Positions 17,930 through 38,340 of a stretch of DNA of 64,000 nucleotides are shown one piece after another; the first letter of the stretch is position 1, and each line of letters starts with the position of its first letter. The position numbers and the translations under genes were made by a program. The notes beneath the pieces are model-generated. The model was not told the DNA's origin. It ran no database searches and was given only the letters and a program-made list of their open reading frames with translations. Source of the stretch: Pegea sp. RAD2-039 (Eukaryota > Chordata > Thaliacea > Salpida > Salpidae); assembly GCA_034620365.1 (NCBI GenBank), contig JAQGEQ010000195.1, forward strand, positions 186,001-250,000. The letters run 5' to 3'.

Positions 17930-19571
17930 GTAAATTCATTAGGAAAAGTGAGGTATTGAGTCAGGGAAGATCTTCGTTTCACAAAGTTATGCTAGACATC
18001 AGATATCAGATGGTGCTCCATTAATTATCATTAAGTTGGTCATATGATTGTGAATGATATGTTCTTCAGATCTGTAGGTAACTGAGGTCAGTAAAACTGA
18101 TCTGTAGTTAGATGCAGTGTTTCTGGGACCCTTTTTGTGAATAAGAGTAATAATAACTTTCTTACAAATTTGAGAAACTTTTCCTCGCTTTAGAGTGATG
18201 TTAAAGAGCAGAGATAACGGCAGTGATAAAGAGGAAGTAGTTTTTTTTTAACATTGCAGGGATCTGATCAGGGGTGTTAGAAACTGATGACTTTAAAAAG
18301 GATATAGCCTTAGCTACCATATTGACCGTTATGTCAACATCTATCATGTCAGAGACATTTGTGAGAATTTTGCAGTAGCAAAGAGAAGAAATATTGCCAT
18401 TATCTGTCGAAAAAAATGATCTGTGTTAGATTGTTTTTTAGCAATTCAGCGTGTTTCCCCGGTTCCATCACAAGCTGGTTTTTATTATCAAGTAAGAGAG
18501 GTAATTGAAATCTCGCCTTAAGCTTGCGATTTATGGAGCCAAAAAATGTTTTCTTGCTAGGTGAAAATAAGACTGCACTTTCTCTCCCTAAGTATAAATT
18601 AGAAATATATTTCTTGTAAACTATACAAAGATCTTTGTACAGTGATTTGATGGAAGGGTCTGTTTCAGTTTGTTTGTATAGAAGATTTTTTCAATTTTTT
18701 TAGCTCCTTAAATGTTTGGGCAAATGTGTTTTTTTTGTTTGACTCTATTAAAAGGTATGAATTTCTCAATTGACTCTTTAACGATGTTAGAAAACCTTGA
18801 GTTAATAGTATTGTTTTTCCGGTAGAGTTGAAAATAGAAATCAAGTCAACACCTGATAGAAACTTATTCAATACCATCATAATTTCCACTATAAAGATTC
18901 CAATTGGTTAGAGTTTTAATGTTAATGGAAAAAGTTAGATAAAGCTTGAATTCAATCATGTTTGAAGATTCAAAGATATTACCACTAAGTTGGGTCTGAA
19001 AAGTAAATAAATTGAGATAAGCTGTTAGCATCAAGGAAACTTACAAGGCATGACTTAAAATGGCTGAATTGGGATTGTCGCTATCCGAGTTAAACGATGT
19101 TTCCATAAATGCTGAATTCGGGGTTTTCCAATCAATTTTACTAAAATTAAAATACCCCAAAATATATAACTCAGGACACGCAAAACTTTTCAAAATCTTT
19201 AATAATAGTAACCCCCGTCATTAGTTTTAGAGGGTGGTAGGTAGGTACATATAAATCGAGAAAAATGTGGACTTTGAGTAATGAAAATCGAAAGCGATAA
19301 TCTCAAATCCTGGACAACAAATGGGATCGATCTGAATTCTTGAGATCATGGGTGCAAGCGATGTTTTGTAAATTACGCAAACACCGCCGCCTCTATCATA
19401 CAGTCTGTTACAACGCAAAGCACTAAAAAGATTACCGTCAACCAGAAAAGAATCAGGATAAAACAGTTTCAACCAAGTTCCAGTAATAAAAACAAATGTG
19501 AAATCTTGAGAATGCAAAAGAGCTTTCCATTTGAAAATGTTCTTAATAATCGACCGCGCGTTGAAGAACAT
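17930..19571 (-). mobile_element. LINE fragment: endonuclease plus start of reverse transcriptase (CR1/L2/Jockey-like, family 1)
   Basis: The 5' block (19571-19227) reads as an endonuclease domain: FFNARSIIKNIFKWKALL, then FITGTWL, then DRGGGVCVIYKTSLAP. This is the N.RSI...L..L...ITETWL...DR..GGGV.I pattern of non-LTR endonucleases. Past 18900 the linker (FIPFNRVK, FFGSINRKLKARFQLPLLLD) and RT motifs 0-2 (TLKRGKVSQICKKVIITLIH, then KRRSSLTQYLTF) follow in shifting frames. Nucleotide similarity with the plus-strand copy at 24840 is obvious over 150 bases (GAGGAAGAGTTTCACAAATT against GCGAGGAAAAGTTTCTCAAA). It is 5'-truncated and lacks the catalytic YADD region. Stops and frameshifts show it is inactive. 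Confidence 0.8.
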
Positions 19572-19719
19572 ACCAAATGTAATAGAAGAATTGACTTTGT
19601 CGAAAAAGAATCATTTATTACAAGTAATATGCACTTACCAGAAATGATTTTATCACAACTTATTAGCCTTATTCAACAGAGTATAACCGATAACTTTATC
19701 CAAATAGGGTATTAATTAT

Positions 19720-20397
19720 AAGTGCAGTTTTTTTATCAAAATATATTGTCATTTCATTGGTTAAATAAAGTCATGTGATATTTTTTATAGAACCAAATTC
19801 TATCACCTATATATAGAAGTTTATGAATAATGTTATAAGTTATAATCTGTATAATTTTTAAGCAAAACCTTATTATATTAAGCATACTTTTTATTTGCCA
19901 TATTTAAAGTATTTGTTTATTTATAATAACTTCTAATACTTGTGTAAATAAATTTCTTGGATATTACAAAATTTATTTCAGTTATCAAATCAAACACTCA
20001 ATTCTACAGTATTATCTAGTTTTAAATAAATTAATACAGAGTATTTTTTTTCATTTTCAAGTAATTCCTAATGTAAATTCCATTTATATAAAGCATATTG
20101 AAGAAAATTATAATTTAGTTGTATTTCTGTTTTAAAGTATTTTGTTTTTCACCTTTTATTGGAATATTAAATAAATAAAAAAATTTTATAAGAAAAAAAT
20201 TTATTGTTTAAAGTGTTATATATTTTTATATCTGTTTTAATATCGCATAAATTAAAAAAGGTTGATATATATACTAGATTAAGTATTTACCAATAGATCT
20301 TTGATCCATTTAAAAAATATATTTTTGTTTAGTGTTTTAATCTATAGATTTTTATTACTGCTTTAAAAGTTCTGCACTAGTTATAATAAAGTTGCAA
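19720..20397 (+). other. Spacer upstream of the zinc-finger gene
   Basis: Extremely AT-rich, no ORF and no recognisable element. It presumably carries the promoter and 5' UTR of the gene starting at 20398. I see no clear core-promoter element. Confidence 0.4.
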
Positions 20398-21411
20398 ATG
20401 ATGGAAACAAAGTTTGATTTCAAACTTAAAGATTATTTTTATGGATGCTCAAAGAAACGAATTGTTGAGATTGATACAAAAATATCAAAGAAATTTACTT
20501 GTCTGGATTGCAAAAGAGTCTTTAAAAGTAATTGTGGTTTGATGAGTCATGCCAAAATAAAAGTGCTTTCAGATTGGATAAAAGAATCAAAAAGAAATTT
20601 GATTTTCTGTAATTTTTGTTACAGAAACTTTAATAATGTGAAAAGTGCTTCAACTCATCTCAAAACTGTTCATAAAATATCTAACGAAACCATCTGTGAA
20701 ATCTGTGAAAAGCATTTTGATAATAATAATGATATGTTTGATCATATGAAATCGTTTCATAATCCAATTGAGATGCCTTACAAGTGTCCAATTTGTTTGT
20801 ATCAAACTTCTTATTATTGTAATTTGTTTACTCATTTTCAATCTTGCCACAAGGATACAAAACATTTATTATGTTATTTTTGTCTTGAAGTTTTTGAATG
20901 TCAAGATTTGTTTTTAAAGCATACTCTTCATCATTCAGCAGTTAACAAGAAGTATAAATGTAATTCATGTAGATTATTTTTCACTTCTATGAATTCCAAA
21001 AAATCTCATTGCCAAGAATCTCATAATTCTGCTGTAGAAGATGCTGACCAGACAGTAATCCCTAAAAATATATTAGAACATGCAGTTACAATAAGATTTG
21101 ACAGTGGATCGCCCTCAAAGTTTGTCATCCCTAAATCTCATACTAAGTTAAGATGCTTGGAATGCCAAGATATTTTTTCTGAGGAATCTTCTGCAAGAAA
21201 AAATCCTCTTGAAAATAGTTTAATTTGCTCAAACTGCAAATATAAATCAGATAAATTAGCTACTAAATCTCAAGTATGTGATCAAGATGTATCATCTAAA
21301 AATGCTCTGCAATCTGAAAATGAAGTATTTAATTTTGAAGAAAATACTTCAGGCAAATTACAGGAGAATTTAAGTGAAGTAGAAAGTTTACAGGGACAAC
21401 TCAAGAGTTGA
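20398..21411 (+). CDS. C2H2 zinc-finger protein, intronless, ends at a TGA in readthrough context
   Basis: A single open frame of 337 codons from ATG ATG at 20398 to TGA at 21409-21411. The frame is open two codons further 5' but only from a TTG. It encodes roughly six C2H2-type fingers. A first, degenerate one is CLDC....SHAKIKV. Then come FCNFCYRNFNNVKSASTHLK, ICEICEKHFDNNNDMFDHMK, CPICLYQTSYYCNLFTHF, CYFCLEVFECQDLFLKH and CNSCRLFFTSMNSKKSHCQ. A late CLEC...CSNC pair follows near residues 256-282. The last ~60 residues are acidic and Ser/Asn-rich. Probably a nuclear DNA- or RNA-binding protein; I do not recognise an orthologue. The stop is followed by CTAG, and the same frame stays open to 21945 (next entry), so the true product may be longer. 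Confidence 0.85.
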   Translation: MMETKFDFKLKDYFYGCSKKRIVEIDTKISKKFTCLDCKRVFKSNCGLMSHAKIKVLSDWIKESKRNLIFCNFCYRNFNNVKSASTHLKTVHKISNETICEICEKHFDNNNDMFDHMKSFHNPIEMPYKCPICLYQTSYYCNLFTHFQSCHKDTKHLLCYFCLEVFECQDLFLKHTLHHSAVNKKYKCNSCRLFFTSMNSKKSHCQESHNSAVEDADQTVIPKNILEHAVTIRFDSGSPSKFVIPKSHTKLRCLECQDIFSEESSARKNPLENSLICSNCKYKSDKLATKSQVCDQDVSSKNALQSENEVFNFEENTSGKLQENLSEVESLQGQLKS

Positions 21412-21945
21412 CTAGATGAAAAAACTTTAATGCCTGGTATTGATCAAACAGAAAACAAAGCTACTTCATCTGTATTTTCAAATGATATTTTAAATATTTA
21501 CGCACCAAGAGCTTTAAATAATAATTTTTCGTCAACTGAAAATTTGTTCAACTCAAAGACCGGGAAATCTGTTGACTCAAATGATTCTCACAAAACTTCT
21601 GGAAATGAATCTCCAATTAATAAGGAATCAGTTAATGACACTTTAATCACTACGCAGACATCAGTTACTTCCAAAGTCCCTGCTGCTCCTCAGTATGTGT
21701 CAGTTTCTGGAATTCAAGCTTCAAGTTTTGTAATTTCTTGGACAAGGCCTAATTCACAAATTAGTGGTTACAAATTAATCTTTCAAAGAGTTAACATGTC
21801 CACAGAAGTAATACTTGATTCAGGAAAACGTTCGGTGATATTAGCTGGATTGAAGTCTAAAACACGGTATACTATCTCACTTACTTCATTGAATCATGGA
21901 ATAGTTGGAGAATCTGCTAATTTTGATGTCACTACTTTAGATTAA
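21412..21945 (+). CDS. In-frame extension with a fibronectin type III domain (readthrough product or separate ORF)
   Basis: This 177-codon stretch is in exactly the same frame as the zinc-finger ORF and separated from it only by the TGA at 21409. Six codons follow the TGA before the first ATG (21430). The first ~85 residues are low-complexity and Ser/Asn-rich, like the end of the upstream ORF. From about 21676 comes a clear FN3 domain: VPAAPQYVSVSGIQASSFVI, SWTRP, ISGYKLIFQ, GLKSKTRYTISLTSL and a final VTTLD. It ends at TAA 21943-21945. Animal mRNAs are not normally bicistronic at this spacing. The candidates are translational readthrough, a recently broken single gene, or a sequence error. 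I prefer readthrough because the context is TGA-CTAG. Known C2H2 proteins with a C-terminal FN3 domain are uncommon. Confidence 0.7.
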   Translation, partial: LDEKTLMPGIDQTENKATSSVFSNDILNIYAPRALNNNFSSTENLFNSKTGKSVDSNDSHKTSGNESPINKESVNDTLITTQTSVTSKVPAAPQYVSVSGIQASSFVISWTRPNSQISGYKLIFQRVNMSTEVILDSGKRSVILAGLKSKTRYTISLTSLNHGIVGESANFDVTTLD

Positions 21946-22349
21946 TCTGTTTCTCTAAAGAAAAATGAAGAAGATATGTTGTTGTTGTGATTTATTTAAT
22001 TAGGAAAAGTTTAATCTTTTAATATCTTTAATGTGATGAAAGTTTTTCATTATTGAGTAGCATGCCAATATCTAATAGTATCCAATGATTCTATTTCACG
22101 TAAATTTCACCTTCCAAGTAATTTTTTCACAATTATGTATTGTTTAAAAGTGCAATTTATTTATAAGTTAAAATTTTTGTGAAACATTTAATTTGAAGAT
22201 TCCACAAAAGCTGCTCGTAAAAGAATGTAGTTGGTCGCCTAAAAGCTTATTTCTATCTTTGCAATAGAATGCTTCACAAAATAAAAAAGTATTTTAGCGT
22301 GCGAGTTAATTTGACTTTGATATTGTAGGCGGTAGTGAGAATGTTTAGA

Positions 22350-22960
22350 TGAGTGATAAGATTTGACTCCTTTGCTTCAAGAATAATAATTTTTGTTGTC
22401 TGAAGACCGTTTGAAAGCTTAAGTTAAAAACTTCAGCTTTTTAAGATCGCTGAGATACAAGGATTTATTTTTATCCACCAGGGGTAGTATGGATAAACAG
22501 AAATTTAATTTTGATTTAACAGATTTATAGAATTTGCGTGATGAGCAGCTGTTACAAATTTTACCCTTCCTATAATTGTGCCTCTTATTGCTTCAGCTAC
22601 TTTATACAAAATTCTTAAATCATTTTAGTGGTTTTATAATTCAAGCTTTATAACATCTTTTTCAAGTAATAATATAAAATAATAACTTTTTCCATACGAT
22701 AGAGTTGAAATCTAATTTGGAACTTAAGTAGTGAAAACCTTTAACAATGTCCGAATATTTCTTGCCTTGAACAGTTTTAGAATTTCATATAAAGTAGATA
22801 ATCCAACTTTGAAAAAATAATTTCCTTGGTTAATTTATTTCAAGTCTTGAGAGATGAAGATCCCCAAGTCTTTAATTACCTGATATTGGGCAGATAACTG
22901 TCAAAGTGTTAATAACAATCCCAGAACAAAAGGACAGACACTAGAAGGCTGAAGCTTGAC
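22350..22960 (-). mobile_element. LINE fragment: 3' part of reverse transcriptase (CR1/L2/Jockey-like)
   Basis: On the minus strand the sequence gives IKDLGIFISQDLK, then YEILKLFKARNIRTLLKVF. This corresponds to the conserved ..VKDLGV..+..L...........+A......+L..F..R....L..L+..YVRP segment after the YADD motif. Near its end (22480-22360) it is similar at nucleotide level to 29830-29960, placing both in one family. Many stops; inactive. Confidence 0.68.
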
Positions 22961-23885
22961 GAATGAGTTATCTATGAAGGCAAATTTGTCATTACTATTT
23001 CAAGCTGAAATCTATAGTGATTAAGACAACTTATGTTTTGATTGAAATTGTTAAGTTTAACATGGCTTTAAGATTTTGTATTAAAATTAAGTTCAAAAAT
23101 ACTATTAAAATAACCATTTTTAAGTTTTTTACAGGATATATACTGATAATAACCATTTATTTAGAGCTTTATTCAATTTGTAAAAGACGTTTAACAAAAA
23201 TGCTAATTCCAAACAGTACACGCTACAAACACTCCAAAGTGTATTACAGAAGGAACCTGGTATATGAAGTTGTTACGCGTACATTGGCTTAACCTCCAGT
23301 AGTTCAGCCTTCTTTAAACTATAATTTTTTTTATTGAGTAGAATAAATACAGGAGCTTTCAACATCTCTTCTTCTTAAGTGATAGTATGAAGCTCTCTTC
23401 TTTCTAAGTGATAGTTTGAAGCTTATTTCATGCTTTGTCAAATCTAATCTATTTCTATCACAACTAGTCTTATATAAGAATAATTTCAAGCCTTCTCTGC
23501 GCTTTCTGCAACGACTTTGGAATTGTAAGGGGTTAAAGATTCATCGAAAGTTTCAAACTCTTTGCATCATGCTTTATTGATCTCTTTCCACACAATAGCC
23601 TCGGAAACAAAGCTCTTCAACTCCATATACTGCAATTCGTTAAAGGTCATTTTTGTGTCTCCGACGAACTAAAGAACTGTGGGTGCTACGTAGCTGTTCT
23701 ACCAAAGATTTGCATTCTAAGTAAAAGAACAACGCGATATAAAACAATAAAAAGGATAGAAAGAAAGTTTCAGAGTTACAAAGTTTGCTTTCCCGCTTCC
23801 ACTATTCTCTCTTCCGCCGTGGTTGTAACAACATCTACGGAATTCATTATAATTCTTGGCAAAACGCTCCTGAATATTTTTATAA

Positions 23886-36202: not shown

Positions 36203-36365
36203 TGGGGGCTTGCGCGTACGCATCGCCCCATGTAAGAAATTGTACGAACGAGTTATTCACATTTGGAATAATCGCAGGGGTCAATCTGATCGCAGTGCAA
36301 TGAACAGACCTCGTCCTGGGCCAACGGTCTTCCTGATCACCGTTTAACCTTCGTCAGGTAAGTAT
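36203..36365 (-). ncRNA. U1 snRNA gene, copy 1
   Basis: U1 snRNA pairs with 5' splice sites. The minus strand starts with ATACTTACCTG, the invariant U1 5' end. Stem-loop I has the U1-70K loop as GATCAGGAAG, closed by ACGGT and ACCGT. Stem-loop II carries the U1A-binding ATTGCAC. The GACCCCTGCGATT core and stem-loop III (TTATTC loop GAATAA) follow, then the terminal hairpin with a TACG tetraloop closed by GGGGC and GCCCC. The length is 163 nt (human U1: 164). The Sm region reads AATTTCTTACATGGGG, which lacks the GG expected directly after the U-rich run. Nearly identical to copy 2. Confidence 0.95.
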
Positions 36366-36390
36366 GCTTCTGACGACGATCTTCATGTAA

Positions 36391-36436
36391 ATATAAGCGT
36401 TTTTAAGTTTTATGTTTGTGGTTCGAACTGACGTCA
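36391..36436 (-). promoter_or_regulatory. U1 copy 1 promoter elements: PSE-like core, TATA-like box, TGACGTCA
   Basis: On the minus strand ACCACAAACATAAAACT occupies 36422-36406, i.e. 41-57 bases upstream of the U1 start, the usual place of a proximal sequence element. TTATAT lies about 26-34 bases upstream. TGACGTCA (36429-36436) sits directly upstream of the PSE. The PSE-like core is repeated at the same distance before the other two U1 genes. Confidence 0.65.
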
Positions 36437-36859
36437 CTACGTTTTATGAAATTTTTGGTTTATTGAATCAACAACTTTCTGTTACAAATTATAAAAAAGT
36501 TTATCAGCAGATAGCAAAATACAAAGAATTTCTTCGGAAAAAATATATCAGCAAACTTCTGAAGTATTTCAATTCTCTTTGTTTGCTCTAATTGAAGTCA
36601 TTTCTTAATAATTTTTTAAAAAGTTGAATTTAAAGATAAACATAAAATACATCTTTAGTCTAAACTTGCTAAAATCAAATATACAACATTTTTAAAAAAG
36701 AAATCATCATTTGAAGATCACCTTAATTTAGAAAGGAAAGACTTGGAATTAGCAATGGGCTCATCTAGTAGTTTCTGCAGTCAAATCAAAGGTCAGTTTA
36801 ACAATCGTGTCTATCAAATCGATTCAAAGATTTCTTTCCTGATGTCAATGAAAGTATCT

Positions 36860-37165
36860 GATCAAATCGAGACACAAAAATATAAAGCTAATTATGGTTG
36901 ACTGGTAGACCTCTAATGAAGTTTCTTGTCAGTCAGTAAGTTAATTTCATCTTTTAAGCTGCAGACAAAGTTTCAGTTTGTCACAATATCTATACCATCA
37001 AGATATCTGATAAAAATTATCTTACCTAAAAATTAGTAAACCATATATTACTAAGTTATTCAAATTAACTTCCAGTAAATGTTTTATTGCTAAACTTGTA
37101 AGGTAAATGTTTTCGTTCAAACTCTGTTTCAAATAGCTTAATCAAAATACTTTTGCAAACAAAAT
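36860..37165 (+). repeat. Direct repeat A2 of the U1 cluster
   Basis: Partner of 35024-35305; about 90% identical by eye, with one insertion near 37100. Confidence 0.85.
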
Positions 37166-37616
37166 TCTTCCTTCTTAATATTTATATGATAATAAAATAA
37201 TTATTCTAGATAGATTTTGCTCAGGCTATGATAAATTACATAATAAAACAAAATTGTTTATTTTGTTCAATAAAAATTAAAAGAAATGCAAATTAGATTT
37301 TTTATTGAAAACAACTATATCAAACAAAATCTAATAAATAATCACCAGGATAAACAAAAAAATAAACATAGAAAAGTGTTTGGTTAATTGATTAAATTTT
37401 GCCAAAAAATACTCTACTAAGATAAGGGTGAGCTTATACTTGACAAACTTTATTTCAAATTTCAGCTAAGATTTTAACATTTATTTTAGTCAAAGTGAAT
37501 GATAGGCTCGATCTAAAATAAACTTTTAATATAAAACGGCCTTAGAATTTTATCCTACCCGAAAGCTTACCGATTAAGGCTAAAGCGAATAACTAAAGTA
37601 GTTGAGATTATTTAAA

Positions 37617-37779
37617 AAGGGGAAAGCGCGTACGCAGTCCCACCCCCATAAATTGCACAGCCGAGTTGACTACATTTGAGTCAATCGCGGAGGTAGTTTC
37701 AATCGATGTGCAATGAAAGAAACCACTCCCCGGACCCACCACCTTTATGATCATGGTGCAGCCACTGCCAAGTAAGTTT
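37617..37779 (-). ncRNA. U1 snRNA variant gene, copy 3
   Basis: The minus strand begins AAACTTACTTGGCAG, so U1 nucleotides 3-8 are kept but position 9 is T instead of C. Stem-loop I loop is GATCATAAAG with CACC/GGTG closing. Stem II has ATTGCAC with flanking TTTCA and TGAAA able to pair. Stem III is TTGACT...AGTCAA, differing from the other copies by compensatory changes. The Sm site is AATTTATGG, a good match to the consensus. The terminal stem has GACTGCG-TACG-CGC and TTTCCCC, closer to the vertebrate U1 3' end than the other copies. Length 163 nt. Conserved pairing suggests selection, not decay. It may alter 5' splice-site preference. Confidence 0.88.
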
Positions 37780-37800
37780 AACAGTGATGCTTCATTGCTT

Positions 37801-37835
37801 TATTTATAACTCGAGTTAGTTTTAGTGTTTGTGGT
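37801..37835 (-). promoter_or_regulatory. U1 copy 3 promoter elements: PSE-like core and TATA-like box
   Basis: On the minus strand ACCACAAACACTAAAACT lies at 37835-37818, 39-56 bases upstream of the U1 start, and TTATAAATA at 37809-37801. The flanks otherwise differ from copies 1 and 2, so conservation of this core at fixed distance supports function. Confidence 0.65.
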
Positions 37836-38177
37836 GACATGACTAATTTACAATGCTTTTTGACAACTCTTGGATAAGTTTTTATAAAAGTAGTTAATAG
37901 AATTTATAATTCTCAGTAAAAGTTAAGTTACAATCAATCATTTGAAAATAAAGGAGTATAATAGTTTACCATCAAGTCAAATATTATGACTAGTCCAGCC
38001 ATGATTTGAAAAAGGAACAGTGCAGGTTGACATTTTACATTTAAGCTTTTTATAACTTTATTTGTATGCTATTAAGTTTTTCAAAACTTTTTTCAGCGTC
38101 AATTACCAGCTAAAGCTACTCCTGTACAACTCCATATGAAAGTTTCAGTGAGAAGTCAATACGTTTGATTGTTTAGA

Positions 38178-38340
38178 TAGGGGCTTGCGCGTACGCATCG
38201 CCCCATGTAAGAAATTGTACGAACGAGTTATTCACATTTGGAATAATCGCAGGGGTCAATCTGATCGCAGTGCAATGAACAGACCTCGTCCTGGGCCAAC
38301 GGTCTTCCTGATCACCGTTTAACCTTCGTCAGGTAAGTAT
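38178..38340 (-). ncRNA. U1 snRNA gene, copy 2
   Basis: Same as copy 1 in every recognisable part: 5' end ATACTTACCTG, U1-70K loop GATCAGGAAG, U1A motif ATTGCAC, stem III with GTGAATAACTCG, Sm region AATTTCTTACATGGGG and a TACG-capped terminal hairpin. The transcribed part is almost identical to copy 1, while the flanks carry scattered differences. This points to recent duplication or gene conversion. Confidence 0.95.

What the first reader, a model, noticed from the sequence alone, without database searches (positions are those of the whole stretch)
20398..21945. Candidate programmed stop-codon readthrough joining zinc fingers to an FN3 domain
The zinc-finger ORF ends AGT TGA CTA GAT and the same frame then stays open for 177 codons, encoding a good FN3 domain. 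Seen directly: same frame, a single TGA, and CTAG right after it. Established: UGA followed by CUA(G) is the best characterised leaky stop context in animal mRNAs. Inference: the short form is a pure zinc-finger protein and the readthrough form adds a protein-interaction module. An extension that keeps an intact domain is unlikely in a simple pseudogene.
Basis: partly seen in the sequence, partly recalled or inferred. Interest (0 to 1): 0.85.

Follow-up and report, generated by a model that had tools for sequence, protein, structure and literature searches.

The report
Leaky stop inside zinc-finger–FN3 gene
An animal gene whose nearest intact relative makes one continuous protein (zinc fingers joined to a fibronectin-type domain) carries a single stop codon in the middle, set in a sequence context known to be read through, so it may make a short and a long protein from one message, although a recent damaging mutation would look similar.

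Summary
A 337-codon zinc-finger ORF (20398-21411) ends TGA-CTAG; the same frame stays open for 177 codons and encodes a real FN3 domain (51 bits).

New: the window's own 105.7 Mb animal genome holds a paralog (contig C125) that joins six fingers to FN3 in one uninterrupted 510-codon ORF. So the joined protein is most likely ancestral and the TGA a derived stop inside it. A dead copy on contig C32 also has TGA at the aligned position, though followed by ATAG, not CTAG (likelihood ratio about 7-8 for a TGA older than the duplication; 2.5 at worst). Since that split the dead copy took 9 internal indels in its FN3 part, the window copy none. Together this favours a tail still translated behind an old stop, most likely by UGA-CUAG readthrough.

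It is not proven. The polarised substitution test on FN3 is not significant, finger 1 of the window copy has lost a zinc ligand, no RNA structure was found, no other species could be compared, and a recent nonsense mutation or a 420-nt in-frame intron over the TGA are not excluded. If real: a new member of a known kind.

The parts
20398..21411 (+). First ORF: 337 codons, six C2H2 fingers (finger 1 lacks its second His) plus a degenerate CxxC...CxxC region, ends in TGA
21409..21411 (+). TGA stop codon in frame between fingers and FN3
   Evidence: aligned to TGA in dead copy C32
21412..21415 (+). CTAG immediately 3' of the TGA (UGA-CUAG readthrough context)
   Evidence: motif from PMC4132726
21412..21684 (+). 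Post-stop linker, open and coding-like in frame 0 (scored over 21412-21678)
21685..21915 (+). FN3 domain (Pfam PF00041 match, residues 92-168 of the tail)
21943..21945 (+). TAA stop ending the extension
21274..21693 (+). Rival reading: 420-nt frame-keeping candidate intron/exitron (GTATGT...CCTCAG) that would remove the TGA
   Evidence: scored with an approximate generic splice matrix written from memory
22280..22285 (+). AATAAA, possible poly(A) signal beyond the extension
   Evidence: seen by eye

Best explanation
The gene descends from a ZnF-FN3 protein that was made in one piece. A TGA arose in the linker before the C32 duplication (inferred). Its UGA-CUAG context lets some ribosomes read through with a near-cognate tRNA, so one mRNA yields mostly a 337-residue zinc-finger protein and some 515-residue protein (337 + 1 inserted + 177) carrying the FN3 module (inferred). 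Shown: same frame, context, domain, uninterrupted paralog, TGA in the dead copy, no indel or further stop in the living tail. Inferred: the age of the TGA, translation past it, its level, and what the FN3 module does.
For: Paralog C125 joins fingers and FN3 in one 510-codon ORF; window and C125 align without gaps over 96 residues around FN3 at 42% identity. The dead copy C32 has TGA at the aligned place, 12 of 14 bases identical at 21404-21417; LR for an ancestral TGA 6.8 and 8.3 on average over possible ancestral codons, lowest 2.5; 2 of 46 aligned window codons one step from TGA are TGA in C32. In the FN3 part C32 has 9 internal indels (7 not multiples of three; two more gaps at the alignment ends left out), the window 0; this depends on one pairwise alignment. 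A simulated neutral window tail would hold 3.0 stops on average, P(0)=0.048. TGACTAG is 2 of 3074 TGAs. UGA-CUAG is an experimentally supported readthrough motif (PMC4132726, abstract and passages).
Against: C32 reads TGA-ATAG, so the CTAG context is not shared, though C32 is dead; if the older codon was TGG the LR is only 2.5. Finger 1 of the window copy has lost its second His, unlike the other four members, and it gives no zf-POGZ match: signs of relaxed constraint. Polarised substitutions at codon positions 1+2: FN3 10 window versus 17 C32, p=0.25; whole tail 16 versus 23, p=0.34 (ZnF part 19 versus 42, p=0.004). No third-position excess in either part. No unusual RNA structure 3' of the stop (z 0.01 and 0.55). 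Among species tested, abundant readthrough was found only in Pancrustacea (PMC5100048 section 17), and this genome gave no cuticle-protein match (where the control genomes were silent too). The window copy lacks the C-terminal stretch that C125 has beyond FN3. One genome only; no expression data.
Confidence: 0.47

Rival explanations
1. Recent nonsense mutation (fixed or segregating): the TGA is young, the FN3 tail is an undecayed remnant, and the gene is either truncated or beginning to die.
For: The joined ORF is most likely ancestral, so an intact tail needs no readthrough; PMC5100048 excluded stops seen only in close relatives for exactly this reason (passage). FN3 and ZnF have similar dN to C125 (0.63 and 0.59; dS 1.6 and saturated), as expected if both were ordinary coding sequence until lately. 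Finger 1 has lost a zinc ligand. The TGA in C32 could be coincidence: about 5% on average, up to 16% if the older codon was TGG.
Against: TGA also at the aligned place in C32 (mean LR 6.8 and 8.3); CTAG would have to follow by chance (2 of 3074 TGAs).
Confidence: 0.33
2. The TGA lies in an alternatively spliced in-frame intron (exitron) of 420 nt, 21274-21693; splicing gives ZnF-FN3 without the linker, retention gives the short protein.
For: Best donor of the ORF (96.8th percentile) and best acceptor of the tail (99.8th percentile; chance of one that good among 27 AGs about 5%) happen to keep the frame.
Against: The stretch holds one stop in 140 codons and the post-stop linker is coding-like, unexpected for untranslated sequence; the acceptor-like CCTCAG is what the FN3 start (Pro-Gln) encodes and is also present in the uninterrupted C125; a donor that good is expected among 49 GTs (P about 0.8).
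Confidence: 0.12
3. Assembly error or a heterozygous allele at 21409-21411.
For: Only one assembly could be seen, and the DNA search of it returned one full copy of the locus.
Against: TGA also at the aligned place in the separate C32 copy.
Confidence: 0.05
4. The tail is a separate product: reinitiation or an own transcript starting at the in-frame ATG 21430.
For: ATG is the seventh codon after the stop.
Against: That ATG is GTA in C32; reinitiation after a 337-codon ORF is rare in eukaryotes (recalled).
Confidence: 0.03

Closest known systems
UGA-CUAG readthrough genes of vertebrates: OPRL1, OPRK1, MAPK10, AQP4 (PMC4132726, abstract and passages)
   Same: UGA followed by CUAG; in-frame coding extension; 12 nt 3' of the stop were enough there, so no 3' structure is required
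   Different: There the motif is conserved across vertebrates and tested by reporters; here neither. Here the extension is 177 codons with a whole folded domain; MAPK10's is 13 residues.
Drosophila dfr/vvl readthrough (PMC8417969, abstract and passages)
   Same: A transcription-factor gene whose readthrough adds a long C-terminal module
   Different: dfr stop is UAG (PMC13170385, passages), the extension is predicted mostly disordered, and readthrough is shown in vivo
POGZ-like C2H2 zinc-finger proteins (Pfam zf-POGZ PF25429)
   Same: The nearest paralog C125 has zf-POGZ above cut-off (31.6 bits, cut-off 27)
   Different: The window copy gives no zf-POGZ match; FN3 at the C-terminus is not part of POGZ as I recall it

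Membership tests
Functional stop-codon readthrough gene (UGA-CUAG class) | UGA stop followed by CUAG | tested here: met
Functional stop-codon readthrough gene (UGA-CUAG class) | In-frame extension with coding signature | tested here: met
Functional stop-codon readthrough gene (UGA-CUAG class) | Stop codon and context conserved among relatives while the extension stays under selection | tested here: inconclusive
   TGA shared with dead copy C32 but CTAG not (ATAG there); FN3 indels 0 versus 9; FN3 substitution test p=0.25; the uninterrupted paralog has no stop; no other species available
Functional stop-codon readthrough gene (UGA-CUAG class) | Translation past the stop | not testable with these tools
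   no ribosome profiling, peptide or RNA data
Readthrough promoted by a 3' RNA structure | Stable structure just 3' of the stop | tested here: not met
   z 0.01 (100 nt) and 0.55 (201 nt)
Selenoprotein (UGA as Sec) | SECIS element in the 3' region | tested here: not met
   no SECIS family listed (whole window, gathering) or (20300-23500, E up to 5)
POGZ-like zinc-finger protein | zf-POGZ double finger | tested here: not met
   no match in the window ORF up to E 0.1; paralog C125 matches

The most novel reading that the evidence does not exclude
A once-continuous zinc-finger protein has been split by an old leaky stop, so that readthrough, in an animal possibly outside the Pancrustacea, doses a complete folded FN3 domain onto it, and the arrangement predates a gene duplication.
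Probability: 0.38. Interest if true: 0.7.

Novelty: new member of a known kind. Interest (0 to 1): 0.48.

Why it matters
In the passages that I saw of five papers on readthrough, no animal extension was described as a whole folded domain; those described were short peptides, targeting or nuclear signals, predicted transmembrane stretches or disordered regions. I did not read those papers whole. Here readthrough would control a complete domain that a paralog carries constitutively, which makes a natural experiment: one copy always joined, the other joined only when the stop leaks. It would also show one route by which readthrough genes can arise: a leaky nonsense mutation inside an existing protein.

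Tried and rejected
Selenocysteine: no SECIS family listed. Genome-wide TGA reassignment: the four uninterrupted paralog ORFs hold no internal stop, and two of the four end in TGA. Stimulating RNA structure: none found. A-to-I editing UGA to UGG: not tested; the base before the A is G, unfavourable for ADAR as I recall. Relatives in viral contigs: ZnF ORF and tail each found none; the other six scans of that collection and the one of genome contigs (prokaryotes) were not used; metagenome scans were capped at 0. Third-position excess between window and C32 as a test of selection: none in ZnF (39 of 139 versus 80 of 276) or tail (28 of 149 versus 70 of 302), so uninformative even for the plainly coding part; the 16 bases just before and in the TGA were left out of those counts. 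FN3 in paralogs C31, C22a and C22b: not established; no Pfam fn3 hit up to E 1, profile comparison 12.9% probability over 32 columns, P 0.0022, model pLDDT 44; so I rest the ancestral joined architecture on C125 alone. Of the 27 matches to the ZnF ORF in the own genome I used the five best (E up to 7.3e-22); the other 22 (E 1.6e-7 and weaker) were not examined. Organism: an animal by 71 homeodomain matches; Chitin_bind_4 and nematode cuticle collagen gave 0 matches, but the control genomes were silent too, so the phylum is not settled; no COX1 match. Papers on ZnF plus FN3, POGZ with FN3, or readthrough extensions with zinc fingers: listings only, no match to this case seen.

Full report
What is there. 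The reading frame that starts at ATG 20398 runs 337 codons to TGA 21409-21411, is followed directly by CTAG, and then stays open for 177 codons to TAA 21943-21945. The first part carries C2H2 fingers; the second carries an fn3 domain at 51.2 bits, led by fibronectin in the PDB sequence search, and its model (pLDDT 72.6, two-sequence alignment) matches FN3 structures with best E 1.8e-6. The fn3 domain of the uninterrupted paralog scores 38.5 bits, so the domain behind the stop does not look degraded. Open frames of that length were not seen by chance: 0 of 3020 overlapping 177-codon stretches from presumed intergenic window DNA were free of stops. Codon usage is coding-like in frame 0 for the ZnF ORF (0.105 bits per codon), the post-stop linker (0.172) and FN3 (0.069), and negative in the other two frames and in the flanks tested; the training set was small (four paralogs and three window ORFs).

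The family. The window is G000:C40:186001-250000 of a 105.7 Mb assembly. Searching it with the two parts found a paralog on C125 where both lie in one 510-codon frame without a stop, with fn3 and zf-POGZ above their cut-offs. Three more paralogs (C31, C22 twice) share the six fingers and have uninterrupted ORFs of 541, 436 and 481 codons, but whether their C-termini are FN3 is not established. Of these five copies only the window's has a stop between fingers and C-terminus. In all five, fingers 2-6 keep their four Cys/His ligands; in finger 1 the window copy alone has lost the second His (C-C-H-I against C-C-H-H). The 22 weaker matches were not examined.

The dead copy. On C32 lies a decayed copy of the window gene: 70-85% identical in the aligned pieces (94% in the 16 bases at the TGA), with a long deletion in the fingers, an insertion of roughly 180 nt, and 8 in-register stops among 285 aligned codons, 7 of them at places that are sense in the window. 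The eighth is TGA aligned to the window's TGA, in AGAGATGAATAGAT against AGAGTTGACTAGAT, with a 2-nt difference just upstream. With substitution rates taken from the window-C32 alignment itself, TGA there is 6.8 (all aligned sites) or 8.3 (tail sites) times likelier if the TGA is older than the duplication; the lowest ratio, if the older codon was TGG, is 2.5. This is support, not proof, and the following base differs (ATAG, not CTAG).

Constraint since the duplication. Window and C125 align without gaps over the 96 residues around FN3, so gaps between window and C32 in that part belong to C32: 9 internal ones, 7 not multiples of three, against 0 in the window; two further gaps at the ends of the alignment were left out, and the count rests on one pairwise alignment. 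Under equal neutral rates that is 0.5 to the ninth, about 0.002. A neutral window tail with half of the observed divergence would carry 3.0 stops on average and none in 4.8% of simulations. Polarised by C125, substitutions at codon positions 1 and 2 fall 19 on the window and 42 on C32 in the ZnF part (p=0.004), but only 10 and 17 in FN3 (p=0.25) and 16 and 23 in the whole tail (p=0.34): same direction, not significant. Window-C32 differences show no third-position excess in either part. These tests bear on readthrough only as far as the TGA is as old as the split.

Mechanism. UGA-CUAG is the motif of the four human genes that read through efficiently in HEK-293T reporters, and UGA-CUA alone gave 1.5% (PMC4132726, abstract). 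The same paper notes 23 human genes with UGA-CUAG, of which four had positive coding scores (passage), so the motif alone is not enough. In the window 2 of 3074 TGAs have it. The likely outcome is a major short zinc-finger protein and a minor 515-residue form with FN3. FN3 as a protein-interaction module is general knowledge; its partner here is unknown. No SECIS and no unusual structure were found.

Rivals. A young nonsense mutation is the strongest rival, since the joined protein is most likely ancestral; PMC5100048 guards against just this by dropping stops found only in close relatives (passage), and the lost finger-1 ligand fits a gene under relaxed constraint. Among the species tested there, abundant readthrough is confined to Pancrustacea (section 17), which lowers the prior if this animal is outside them; the lack of cuticle-protein matches hints so (controls silent). 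A frame-keeping 420-nt candidate intron over the TGA exists; its donor is no better than expected among 49 GTs, its acceptor is better than expected among 27 AGs (about 5%). Against it stand the coding-like post-stop linker, a single stop in its 140 codons, and the same CCTCAG in C125, where nothing needs splicing. Weighing these I give readthrough 0.47 and recent nonsense 0.33.

Noticed in passing
36203-38340, minus strand: Three U1 snRNA genes in a cluster (130.2, 130.0 and 110.0 bits).
   Followed up: no
L008 and L009 (contig C22): Two ZnF paralogs, near identical (98% in the aligned C-terminal part), differ by an in-frame block of about 45 codons in the linker, ORFs 436 and 481: the linker tolerates length change.
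   Followed up: no
C-termini of L007, L008, L009: Acidic ends such as EVIVISDDDDE and EIIYISSDEE look like SUMO-interacting motifs (recalled resemblance, not tested); the window protein ends before any such stretch.
   Followed up: no
19227-19610, minus strand: 127-codon frame that resembles a non-LTR retrotransposon endonuclease fragment to my eye; Pfam gave nothing.
   Followed up: partly
L021:5062-5301 (C32): In the dead copy a frame beginning right after the TGA, covering the post-stop linker, is still open for 79 codons while the fingers and FN3 are broken; it may have been translated for a while after the duplication, or this is chance.
   Followed up: partly
20557-20559 (finger 1, residue 54): The window copy alone of five family members has Ile in place of the second zinc-binding His of finger 1.
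   Followed up: partly
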